64,000 nt of DNA, from positions 26,428 through 90,427 of the IMG/VR virus record IMGVR_UViG_3300032116_000089; one strand, given 5' to 3'. The notes beneath the pieces were generated by a model. That model was given only the letters and a program-made list of their open reading frames with translations, made no database searches and had not been told where the DNA came from. Made by a program: the position numbers and the translations under genes. This document shows, piece after piece, positions 44,336 through 60,489 of the stretch; position 1 is the stretch's first letter; each line of letters begins with the position of its first letter. This DNA is from a virus.

Positions 44336-44580
44336 AGTTGATATATTTTATCTATTCTAGATCTTCTGCGTATGTCTCTACATACTATTCGCATTTCTAT
44401 AGAAGTATTTTGTTTCATGATTATATTAATTAAATCATTTAGTGCTTCAAAACACGCTTCGTCTGGATCCTTGGCTGTAATAAAAATAGTTGGAAATGGG
44501 CTATTATAAGATTTAAGAAATAGGTGTTTTATTTTAATGAAGACATTCGATATGTCTAGCATTATTCTGTAGTTTCTCAT
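44332..44580 (-). CDS. Unknown 82-residue protein overlapping gmd
   Basis: It starts within the 3' end of the GDP-mannose dehydratase gene (47-base overlap) and ends by ATGA coupling with HNH. Composition is basic (CRDIRRRSRIDKIYQL at the end), mixed beta/alpha. An internal ATG (MLDIS) would reduce the overlap. No family was recognised. Confidence 0.5.
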   Translation of the reverse strand: MRNYRIMLDISNVFIKIKHLFLKSYNSPFPTIFITAKDPDEACFEALNDLINIIMKQNTSIEMRIVCRDIRRRSRIDKIYQL

Positions 44581-45622
44581 TTAACTTTTCATCTATCATG
44601 AGTTTAATAAGACCATTTAGATCATATTTTGGATTCCATCCCAGTTTATTTCTTGCTTTAGTAGATCTGCCACGTAGGTAATCTACTTCCGCAGGTCTAT
44701 AGAATTTTTGATCTATGCCAACTAAATTATCCCATTCTATATTAAAATACCCAAAAGACACATCAAGTAAATCTTTTATGGAATATGTATTCTCTGTACA
44801 GATTACATAATCATCTGGTTCATCTTGCTGCAACATCATCCACATTGCTTCGACATAATCGCCAGCATAACCCCAATCTCTATAGGCATCTAAATTACCT
44901 AACATTAATTTAGGAAACTTTTTATCATATAATCCAAAGATTTCTATGTCGGAGTAGCATAGGTGTTTTATGTCAAAACTGTTATACTCTAGCCAATTAA
45001 TAAAACTAACTACCCAATTCACTACTTTTTTGGTGACAAAATTGTCGCCTCTGCGTGGCCCCTCATGATTAAACAATATTCCACAATTTCCATGAATGCC
45101 ATATGCTTCACGGTATAGTCTAACGGCGTAGTGAGATGCCGCTTTAGCTATGGCGTATGGAGACTGAGGCAAAAATCTAGTATTTTCGTCTTGGTATTTA
45201 ATACCATTGGCGTCAATGTCATATGATTTTCCAAACATTTCGCTAGAAGAAGCTTGATAAAATCTTGAACCAAGCATTTCAAGATCAACCATACTTTGTA
45301 ATATATTAAGACAGCCTTTACCGGTTATATCCCAAGTTAGGGATGGCTGCGTGAATGATGTGCCTACGTGCGATTGAGCCGCTAGATTATAGATTTCATC
45401 TACATCTTCGTTATTTCTAAATATATTGATGACACTGCTTGTATCTGTTATATCACCCTCTTCCAATTTGAATCTAGGATGATTTAATATATGTTTTATT
45501 CTTTGTGTATTATCTGTGCTTGCTCTTCTGCTAACCCCAATTACTTCGTAGTCTTTCTCTAATAATAGATCAGCTAAGTGGCTACCGTCTTGTCCTGTTA
45601 TTCCAAATATTATTGATTTCAT
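44534..45622 (-). CDS. gmd: GDP-mannose 4,6-dehydratase
   Basis: 362 residues, the normal length for this SDR-family enzyme. It converts GDP-mannose to GDP-4-keto-6-deoxymannose, precursor of fucose, rhamnose-type and perosamine sugars. Visible are the NADP site GITGQDGSHLADLL (7-20), NLAAQSHV, the active-site SSSEMFG and SPYAIAKAASH (Tyr/Lys pair), and RPAEVDYLRG near the C terminus. No partner epimerase or reductase is visible in this window. It is adjacent to a glycosyltransferase, so it probably feeds sugar decoration of virion or host surface. Confidence 0.92.
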   Translation of the reverse strand: MKSIIFGITGQDGSHLADLLLEKDYEVIGVSRRASTDNTQRIKHILNHPRFKLEEGDITDTSSVINIFRNNEDVDEIYNLAAQSHVGTSFTQPSLTWDITGKGCLNILQSMVDLEMLGSRFYQASSSEMFGKSYDIDANGIKYQDENTRFLPQSPYAIAKAASHYAVRLYREAYGIHGNCGILFNHEGPRRGDNFVTKKVVNWVVSFINWLEYNSFDIKHLCYSDIEIFGLYDKKFPKLMLGNLDAYRDWGYAGDYVEAMWMMLQQDEPDDYVICTENTYSIKDLLDVSFGYFNIEWDNLVGIDQKFYRPAEVDYLRGRSTKARNKLGWNPKYDLNGLIKLMIDEKLNEKLQNNARHIECLH

Positions 45623-58355: not shown

Positions 58356-58838
58356 ATGCCTAACTGGTGCATGAACAATATAACGGTTTCTCACGCTGAT
58401 CCTGCTAAAGTGCAGGAGTTTGCTGATGCCTATAACTCAGGGAATACATGTGACCACTATCTTCCGTGTCCTAAAGACAAGGATGGTAAGATTATTATGG
58501 ACGAGAGTAGTCCAGACTATTGGTACAAGTGGTGCATAAATAACTGGGGTGTCAAGTGGGACTTTGGTAAGGATGAGTATGGTGACTCTGCTGTTGTTGT
58601 AGATAATGAAGTATCTGTATCATTCAATACCGCTTGGGCACCGCCTAATGGTTTGTATGATGAGTTGCACCGTCAAGGATACATTCTAAATGGTTCGTAT
58701 TGGGAACCCGGAATGGGATTCTGCGGCACCATTGAAAATGGCATGGATTTGTATGTGGAATATAGAGACAAGGAAGAAATCCCCGATCATTTGTGGGATG
58801 AGTATGGCATGGCAGATTTTTTTGAGGAAATGGCTTGA
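58356..58838 (+). CDS. Api92/YubB-like protein (ferredoxin-like fold)
   Basis: 160 residues. The N terminus MPNWCMNNITVSHADP and later WCINNWGVKWDFG and FNTAWAPPNGLYDELHRQG are the family's signature motifs. Members occur on phages and plasmids; their function is not settled. The stop TGA (58836-58838) is inside the TTGACA box of the promoter for the non-coding region that follows. Confidence 0.8.
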   Translation: MPNWCMNNITVSHADPAKVQEFADAYNSGNTCDHYLPCPKDKDGKIIMDESSPDYWYKWCINNWGVKWDFGKDEYGDSAVVVDNEVSVSFNTAWAPPNGLYDELHRQGYILNGSYWEPGMGFCGTIENGMDLYVEYRDKEEIPDHLWDEYGMADFFEEMA

Positions 58839-58862
58839 CAAGCCGAAAATAGAGTGTAGAAT
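58835..58862 (+). promoter_or_regulatory. Promoter reading into a long non-coding region
   Basis: TTGACA at 58835, CCGAAA at 58843, TAGAAT at 58857 (16-base spacer). It has the same layout as the protein-gene promoters but no gene follows for about 490 bases. Confidence 0.8.
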
Positions 58863-58868
58863 ACAAGA

Positions 58869-59316
58869 GTCGCAAGCAAGTGGTAATCGGGAATGAATGA
58901 AATCCAGCCGGTTGGTCATTCCTGACACTCGCTGCCGTTGCTCATATGTTTGTCCGAGTATGAGTACCGATAAAACGCTAAGACTTAGCAAGTCTATCGG
59001 CTACAATACAAACTTACGTGTGGTAGTTGCTACTACTAGAGAGATAGCCCAGCAAACAGCGTCTGCATCTAATGGGTGTATGGGGTTGCCGACCTAGGCT
59101 ATGGGAAGGCTCATGCTGCTCTCTATTGGGTTGGATTCCCGACACACGATTTAATACAACCAGTAATCGTTTCCAAGAGCCAGATGAATCATATAGCATA
59201 GCGCAGTGTGAAAGATTCTAGAGAGGTTTCCGTGGGCGGTTTCCATCCGATCCCGACAAGGGGCAATCGTATGGGTTATAGGAATCGGGGCGTAAAAGAT
59301 TCCGCTGGTTTTTCTT
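58869..59316 (+). ncRNA. Candidate large structured non-coding RNA
   Basis: About 448 bases with no supported gene, starting about seven bases after a -10 box and ending in an intrinsic terminator. Perfect or near-perfect helices: 58890-58896 with 58916-58922; 58941-58946 with 58959-58964 (extendable by wobble); 58967-58972 with 58995-59000, or alternatively 58981-58986 with 58990-58995; 59037-59043 with 59119-59125 enclosing 59044-59049 with 59097-59102; 59103-59107 with 59136-59140, which would form a pseudoknot; 59146-59151 with 59165-59170; 59186-59190 with 59214-59218. Several open frames cross it but lack SD sites and break the pattern of neighbouring genes. Size, ornate folding and location near phage tRNA genes recall GOLLD and ROOL RNAs, though no match to them is claimed. 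Confidence 0.6.
59281..59316 (+). terminator. Intrinsic terminator of the non-coding RNA
   Basis: GGAATC (59281-59286) pairs with GATTCC (59298-59303), followed by GCTGGTTTTTCTT. Confidence 0.7.
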
Positions 59317-59317
59317 A

Positions 59318-59345
59318 TTGACAGACTGATAACTAATGGTATAAT
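59318..59345 (+). promoter_or_regulatory. Early promoter
   Basis: TTGACA at 59318, CTGATA at 59327 in place of CCGATA, TATAAT at 59340 (16-base spacer). It drives the five-gene unit 59352-60489. Confidence 0.85.
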
Positions 59346-59351
59346 GAGAAT

Positions 59352-59528
59352 ATGAAAACTGAAACCCTTGAACTTACTAAGACTGAACTTGAATATCTAT
59401 ACAATGTTGTAGATGACCATATTCGTTCTGGTATTTACTGGGGCAAAAAAGAAAACTTTGAAAGTCTGCAAAAGAAAGTATTTGATAAGGTAGAAGAAGC
59501 ATACGACATACTCTGTGAGCAATCATAA
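59352..59528 (+). CDS. Small helical unknown protein
   Basis: 58 residues (MKTETLELTKTELEYLYNVV onward), charged and helical. It starts about seven bases after the -10 box, so the message may be almost leaderless. The stop overlaps the next ATG (TAATG). Confidence 0.6.
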   Translation: MKTETLELTKTELEYLYNVVDDHIRSGIYWGKKENFESLQKKVFDKVEEAYDILCEQS

Positions 59529-60114: not shown

Positions 60115-60489
60115 ATGATTAATGTCAAACTGACCGTTCGTGAGGCTACGTGGATTCTCTCCAAGATTGAGTCCTACGACACGATCTATGACAAGATTGT
60201 GGCAGGGATTGAGGACGCTATTGGTGTGAATCGTCACAAGACCGTTACCATCACTGGCGGTATGACCTTTGACAACCGTATTCCTTGTATCAAGGCTATT
60301 CGTCTCAACACTGGTTGGGGCTTGAAGGAAGCCAAGGATTGGAGCGACGTTCTGGTGGGAACGTGGGATGATGCTGGTCGAAGGCTCAAGGGTGCCAGCC
60401 GTCACAGCATGACCCTCAAGACTCCAGAAGCGGCTGAGAACCTCTTGCGTGATCTGGTGGGTTTGGGGTGCGAAGGTTTTCTCTCTTGA
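60115..60489 (+). CDS. Protein with a ribosomal L7/L12 C-terminal-like domain
   Basis: 124 residues. Residues about 60-124 (CIKAIRLNTGWGLKEAKDW, then LKTPEAAENLLRDLVGLGCE) follow the helix-helix-strand pattern of the L7/L12 C-terminal domain (IK..R..TGLGLKEAKD...EA...L...GA). The N-terminal half is a different alpha/beta segment. In ribosomes this domain recruits translation factors; a phage copy might compete for them, which is speculative. It closes a five-gene unit and is followed by repeat R7. Confidence 0.7.
   Translation: MINVKLTVREATWILSKIESYDTIYDKIVAGIEDAIGVNRHKTVTITGGMTFDNRIPCIKAIRLNTGWGLKEAKDWSDVLVGTWDDAGRRLKGASRHSMTLKTPEAAENLLRDLVGLGCEGFLS

What the first reader, a model, noticed from the sequence alone, without database searches (positions are those of the whole stretch)
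58835..59316. A promoter-to-terminator non-coding unit of about 450 bases with ornate predicted folding
A phage-type promoter (TTGACA, 16-base spacer, TAGAAT) leads into a stretch without a supported gene that ends with a hairpin and T-run. In between lie at least seven perfect helices, some nested coaxially (59037-59049 with 59097-59125), and one likely pseudoknot (59103-59107 with 59136-59140). TAGAGAG occurs twice (59037 and 59219), and both copies can pair with CTCTCTA at 59119, which could be a switch. In a genome that otherwise leaves almost no free space this looks like a structured RNA comparable in size to GOLLD or ROOL, which also travel with phage tRNA genes.
Basis: partly seen in the sequence, partly recalled or inferred. 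Interest (0 to 1): 0.82.

Follow-up and report, generated by a model that had tools for sequence, protein, structure and literature searches.

The report
Modular structured-RNA array in phages
Between a phage promoter and the next gene lies a string of separately folded RNA modules, related to pieces found mixed and matched in about a hundred other uncultured phage contigs, matching no family in the Rfam library and of unknown function.

Summary
Single-sequence folding is unremarkable (z -0.78) and Rfam has no match even at E<=10. Homologues decide the case. Pattern scans find related units on about 98 viral contigs. Each is a chain of self-closed RNA modules strung on an AAUACAA-type linker behind a conserved sigma70-like promoter, usually including module C. 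The window carries three modules: A (58867-59003, few relatives), B (59013-59152) and C (59158-59310).

Module B is a cloverleaf-like shell (acceptor-like stem, D-like hairpin, T-like hairpin with a 7-nt loop) holding a pseudoknotted core where a tRNA has its anticodon arm. The sister form B' (52 distinct sequences) has 42 pairs, 96.5% paired, with two-sided changes at 19 pairs, four of them in the pseudoknot; no shuffle of 500 reaches these values. A model made only from B' finds window B as its one clear hit.

Shells and cores are exchanged between phages. Some arrays contain real tRNAs or tRNA-Glu-like molecules with the anticodon arm replaced. I infer trans-acting, tRNA-scaffolded small RNAs, perhaps for counter-defence; function is untested. 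The proposed pseudoknot, switch and GOLLD/ROOL likeness are not supported.

The parts
58835..58862 (+). Sigma70-like promoter TTGACA-16-TAGAAT
   Evidence: 11 of 12; same promoter type upstream of most arrays
58867..59003 (+). Module A (about 137 nt); fold not established
   Evidence: one related copy (L011) besides the near-identical contig of L002/L094; replaced by other modules in other arrays
59004..59012 (+). Linker CAATACAAA
   Evidence: recurs between modules in other arrays
59013..59152 (+). Module B: cloverleaf-like shell with pseudoknotted core
59017..59022 (+). P1 acceptor-like stem, 5' side (CGUGUG), pairs with 59143-59148
   Evidence: three pairs with changes on both sides
59023..59036 (+). 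D-like hairpin, stem GUAG/CUAC (59023-59026 with 59033-59036)
   Evidence: two pairs with changes on both sides
59037..59043 (+). P2 5' side (UAGAGAG), pairs with 59119-59125
59044..59049 (+). Pseudoknot strand AUAGCC, pairs with GGCUAU 59097-59102
   Evidence: C-G to U-A change on both sides in L012 and L105; same helix strongly covarying in B'
59050..59054 (+). P3 5' side (CAGCA), pairs with 59114-59118
   Evidence: invariant in B; four of five pairs covary in B'
59064..59080 (+). P4 hairpin (59064-59069 with 59075-59080)
   Evidence: one one-sided change
59088..59110 (+). P5 hairpin (GCC 59088-59090 with GGC 59108-59110) whose loop holds the 3' pseudoknot strand
   Evidence: invariant in B; three of four pairs covary in B'
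59126..59142 (+). T-like hairpin UUGGG-UUGGAUU-CCCGA
   Evidence: MFE of the module
59153..59159 (+). Linker AATACAA (its last two bases also begin the closing stem of C)
   Evidence: recurs in relatives
59158..59310 (+). Module C: closing stem 59158-59163 with 59305-59310, inner stem 59165-59170 with 59236-59241, hairpin 59282-59286 with 59298-59302, plus two variable hairpins
59318..59345 (+). Promoter of the next gene (12 of 12), marks the end of the unit

Best explanation
Shown by sequence comparison: 58835-59316 is a phage gene for an RNA of about 450 nt made of three modules joined by unpaired AAUACAA-type linkers; B and C are conserved self-closed folds. It belongs to a family of mosaic RNA arrays in which modules, and the cores inside their shells, are exchanged between phages. 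Inferred: the transcript is cut in the linkers by a host endonuclease and, for the more tRNA-like modules, at the acceptor-like stem by tRNA-processing enzymes, giving stable small RNAs. The conserved cloverleaf-like shell acts as a natural tRNA scaffold that protects the RNA or is read by tRNA-binding factors. The variable core does the specific work, most plausibly binding or occupying host factors during infection (takeover or counter-defence), which would explain the swapping. My separate estimates: family and fold real 0.95; processing into separate RNAs 0.55; host-factor decoy or counter-defence role 0.3. The confidence given is for trans-acting modular small RNAs on tRNA-like shells.
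For: Covariation of B' over 52 sequences: 96.5% of cells paired, 19 pairs and 137 cells with changes on both sides, 0/500 shuffles on all five measures, slid controls 31-40% paired. Window-type B: 99% paired, seven pairs changed on both sides. C. Window B is found by the model made from B' alone. The module's MFE gives all helices except the pseudoknot. No open frame. Own promoter, and the next gene has its own. Arrays include real tRNAs: tRNA-Glu in L068, tRNA-Gln just after C in L100. They also include tRNA-Glu-like molecules whose anticodon arm is replaced: L090, 30.3 bits with a 38-nt insert; L066, 28.0 bits with a 42-nt insert. Exchange: L090 and L097 share the shell (98%) but not the core (58%); L090 and L141 share the core (98%) but not the shell (68%). 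One B'-type module per record in all 12 of 14 records that have a hit.
Against: No transcript data. CCA is not conserved at the 3' end (NCCA after the stem in 30 of 70 modules). The tRNA covariance model does not detect the window's B or the B' modules, so 'tRNA-like' rests there on layout and the T-like hairpin. Some arrays run directly into a Shine-Dalgarno and ORF (L003, L006, L101), which would also fit a leader role. Nothing here links the cores to any host target.
Confidence: 0.5

Rival explanations
1. Cis-acting leader: the array is a 5' untranslated region that controls the gene behind it (riboswitch, attenuator or stabiliser).
For: In L003, L006, L010, L012, L067, L073, L092 and L101 module C is followed closely by a Shine-Dalgarno and start codon without a new promoter.
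Against: In the window and many others the next gene has its own promoter. The genes downstream differ between phages. Arrays hold several unrelated modules, and some end at a tRNA (L084, L100).
Confidence: 0.15
2. Small self-cleaving ribozymes: the pseudoknotted core is a ribozyme that cuts the transcript.
For: The layout (a loop pairing with the strand just inside the outer helix) resembles, from memory, the topology of twister. A pistol ribozyme occurs in another part of one such phage (L068).
Against: No twister or pistol match in the window at E<=10 or in relatives at E<=1.
Confidence: 0.12
3. A GOLLD/ROOL-like RNA that assembles into a cage.
For: Phage-encoded, near tRNA genes, extensively structured, function unknown, as described for those RNAs (PMC12286853).
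Against: No Rfam match. Total length about 450 nt, built of exchangeable modules and not of one conserved fold.
Confidence: 0.08
4. Remnants of tRNA genes without function (decay or recombination debris).
For: Some modules are tRNA-Glu-like with altered anticodon arms; shells and cores recombine.
Against: Compensatory changes at 19 of 42 pairs including a pseudoknot need selection on structure; promoter and layout are kept.
Confidence: 0.05

Closest known systems
GOLLD and ROOL RNAs (Rfam families; PMC12286853)
   Same: Non-coding structured RNAs of phages and prophages, often near tRNA islands, function unknown.
   Different: No model match. Here many small independent modules sit on linkers, not one fold of more than 600 nt; modules and cores are exchanged between phages.
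Phage tRNA arrays
   Same: Promoter-driven strings of small folded RNAs; some units include real tRNAs; tRNA-Glu-like chimeras keep D arm, T arm and acceptor stem.
   Different: The anticodon arm is replaced by other folds; B and B' are not detected by the tRNA model; CCA is not conserved.
Laboratory tRNA scaffold for recombinant RNA (compare PMC3753655)
   Same: A foreign RNA sits in place of the anticodon arm inside a tRNA shell.
   Different: This would be a natural counterpart; stabilisation and processing by the shell are not shown.
RNA anti-CRISPRs, Racrs (PMC10651486)
   Same: Phage small RNAs that mimic a host RNA to block defence; closest idea of function.
   Different: Likeness to CRISPR repeats was not tested; the likeness here is to tRNA; counter-defence is only inferred.
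Twister and pistol ribozymes
   Same: Small pseudoknotted folds in which a hairpin loop pairs back inside the fold (topology recalled from memory).
   Different: No model match; cleavage untested.

Membership tests
GOLLD (Rfam) | match to the family covariance model | tested here: not met
   window, E<=10; relatives
ROOL (Rfam) | match to the family covariance model | tested here: not met
GOLLD / ROOL | homo-oligomeric RNA cage | not testable with these tools
   needs cryo-EM or native gels
tRNA | match to tRNA model RF00005 | tested here: not met
   no hit for window module B; met or borderline only for other modules: L090 30.3 bits, L066 28.0 bits, cut-off 29
tRNA | acceptor-like stem, D-like arm and T-like arm with 7-nt loop in cloverleaf order | tested here: met
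   window module B: covarying shell, MFE; spacing between the stems differs from tRNA
tRNA | anticodon arm with 7-nt loop | tested here: not met
   replaced by a pseudoknotted core of about 90 nt
tRNA | 3' CCA | tested here: not met
   absent in the window (CACACG-AUUUAAUAC); NCCA in 30 of 70 modules
Twister or pistol ribozyme | match to Rfam model | tested here: not met
   E<=10; E<=1
Twister or pistol ribozyme | self-cleavage | not testable with these tools
   needs in vitro assay
Riboswitch / cis leader | constant position upstream of one gene class in one transcript | tested here: not met
   downstream features differ; the next gene in the window has its own promoter; no systematic count was made
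This array family (B/B' fold) | homology of window B to B' modules | tested here: met
   R1 hit 59014-59151, full model length, 21.1 bits, E 8e-5 in 14 kb with filters off; weaker, E 0.19, in 550 kb with filters on

The most novel reading that the evidence does not exclude
A previously undescribed class of phage RNA islands: mosaic arrays of tRNA-derived shells carrying exchangeable pseudoknotted cores that work as a set of RNA effectors against host factors, an RNA counterpart of anti-defence protein islands.
Probability: 0.3. Interest if true: 0.95.

Novelty: categorically new. Interest (0 to 1): 0.82.

Why it matters
Phage structured RNAs near tRNA islands (GOLLD, ROOL) still have no known function. 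This family is compact, modular and numerous, with natural swap experiments already present (same shell with another core, and the reverse), so function can be assigned module by module. If the shells are natural tRNA scaffolds, it shows how tRNA genes can evolve into carriers of new RNA functions. No Rfam family matches the modules except the few tRNA-like ones, and no isolated phage in the collection searched matches the three arrays that were queried, so the family is missing from the annotation resources used here.

Tried and rejected
Single-sequence folding energy as evidence: not significant. Rfam, whole library, down to E 10: two chance matches in the window, none meaningful. Similarity in isolated phages: none. 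Bacterial genomes: the ten genome contigs pattern hits look like chance, judged from the sequence after the match; they were not examined further. Coding alternative: stops in all frames and free length changes. CCA as conserved 3' end: rejected. Homologues of module A: only one besides the window's own near-identical contig, so its fold stays unsupported.

Full report
Observation. The window is 26428-90427 of a 90,427-base viral record, a tailed phage by its terminase. The unit lies between ORF 58356-58838 and ORF 59352-59528. Its promoter, 58835-58862, scores 11 of 12, and the next gene has its own 12 of 12 promoter at 59318-59345. The unit has stops in all six frames. Its folding energy is ordinary (z -0.78). 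Rfam gives nothing meaningful even at E<=10, and the collection of isolated phages gives nothing.

Homologues. Relatives of the upstream gene in viral contigs brought in loci whose intergenic regions match parts of the unit. The parts are not the same in every locus, which showed the modular build. Four pattern scans give, after removing repeats and one chance hit (L074), 98 contigs with at least one module, up to 244 kb long. A scan of bacterial genomes with the module C pattern gave ten hits that look like chance.

Anatomy. Arrays lie behind a promoter of one type (TTGACARGCCGATAATAGAGTGTAGAAT). A promoter-like match within 450 nt upstream occurs in 93 of 98 loci tested, against 48% of random positions in these promoter-rich contigs, so the regular expression alone is weak evidence and the shared sequence is the stronger one. 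Then come one to several modules separated by (AC)AAUACAA(A), usually including module C. Roughly a dozen further module families, many with a visible closing stem, occur among them (sorted by eye). After C there is a promoter of the next gene, an ORF without promoter, a tRNA (L084, L100) or another module. So C is not simply a terminator.

Module B and its sister B'. Window B has six other sequence relatives (alignment A1). B' has 52 distinct aligned sequences (A2). Both have the same plan: P1 (acceptor-like), D-like hairpin, P2, a strand that pairs with the loop of P5 (pseudoknot), P3, P4, P5, T-like hairpin. On A2, 96.5% of 2164 cells pair; 19 of 42 pairs and 137 cells change on both sides; no shuffle of 500 reaches any of the five values; sliding the partners by 1-3 columns drops pairing to 31-40%. 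The pseudoknot helix has four of seven pairs with changes on both sides, for example C-G in 29 and G-C in 23 sequences. On A1, 99% pair and seven pairs change on both sides. The shuffle control does not allow for relatedness, and the structure was drawn on these sequences; the size of the effect and the slid controls make an artefact unlikely. A covariance model from B' alone (R1; pseudoknot not modelled) has its best match in 14 kb of the window exactly at 59014-59151, over its full length (21.1 bits, E 8e-5; next best 6.2 bits). In a larger search with filters the same place scored 14.7 bits, E 0.19, so the link between B and B' is good but rests on shared plan more than on sequence. The MFE of the module alone gives all helices except the pseudoknot.

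Module C. Among 38 aligned relatives three shared helices are 100% paired, with four pairs changed on both sides. The two inner hairpins vary in sequence and length and occur in different combinations. The closing stem occurs as AACCAG/CUGGUU and as AAUCAG/CUGAUU.

tRNA link. Some arrays contain real tRNAs. Where L068 has a tRNA-Glu, L066 and L090 have molecules with similar D arm, T arm and acceptor stem but with the anticodon arm replaced. The tRNA model accepts L090 (30.3 bits, 38-nt insert) and nearly L066 (28.0 bits, 42-nt insert). Window B carries a T-like hairpin with a 7-nt loop next to P1. Window B and the B' modules are not tRNAs by the model and lack a constant CCA. I therefore call the shell cloverleaf-like and regard descent from tRNA as likely for some modules only.

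Exchange. L090 and L097 have nearly the same shell (98%) and different cores (58%); L090 and L141 have the same core (98%) and different shells (68%). Over all 2211 pairs there are 4 of the first sort and 12 of the second at the cut-offs used. In 14 whole records, 12 have one B' module each and none has more; the other two, the window's own and that of L010, carry the B form.

Mechanism. Shown: conserved non-coding RNA modules with their own promoter and frequent exchange. Inferred: transcription as one RNA, processing at linkers, shell as scaffold, core as the acting part, a target in the host. I put the trans-acting reading at 0.5 and a counter-defence or takeover role at about 0.3.

Comparison. 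GOLLD and ROOL share the setting (phage, tRNA neighbourhood; PMC12286853) but not model, size or build. The nearest functional idea is small-RNA mimicry as in RNA anti-CRISPRs (PMC10651486), an analogy only. I rate the class categorically new because neither a family model nor a described system of exchangeable structured RNA modules was found; but literature was searched only in open-licence papers, so a description in a closed journal or preprint could have been missed, and phage RNAs near tRNA genes are a known setting.

True pseudoknot: 59044-59049 with 59097-59102. The proposed one (59103-59107 with 59136-59140) breaks in three of seven relatives with no compensation. The second TAGAGAG (59219) is unique to the window's C module. 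The final hairpin is part of module C.

Noticed in passing
L068 5102-5164: Pistol ribozyme (RF02679, 51 bits, cut-off 34.5) in a 223-kb phage contig about 3.5 kb from the array.
   Followed up: no
L066 5646-5742 (-), L090 995-1092 (-), L086 array: tRNA-Glu-like molecules with the anticodon arm replaced by another insert, at the place where L068 has a tRNA-Glu.
   Followed up: partly
L087 and L093 arrays (GGGGTTATAAGG...CCCGATAACCTCTCCA): Module with a 7-bp acceptor-like stem, T-arm-like hairpin and CCA but a large foreign insert; not detected by the tRNA model in L087.
   Followed up: partly
L003, L004, L009, L011, L012 upstream of the array promoter: Conserved GC-rich element (GGCCCGCCCCGCTAGCTCTAAACCCTTA and variants) and CTTA...AAAAATATTTTTT just before the promoter.
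   Followed up: no
window 60115-60489: Small phage protein with a stretch resembling the ribosomal L7/L12 C-terminal domain (Pfam, below cut-off).
   Followed up: no
L104, L109, L114, L131 directly after module C: A further recurrent module CAGGGGTCGGATAGAAACC..., with weak tRNA-model hits nearby in L131 and L104.
   Followed up: no
window 44534-45622: GDP-mannose 4,6-dehydratase-like gene (PF16363, 351 bits) near the terminase gene.
   Followed up: no
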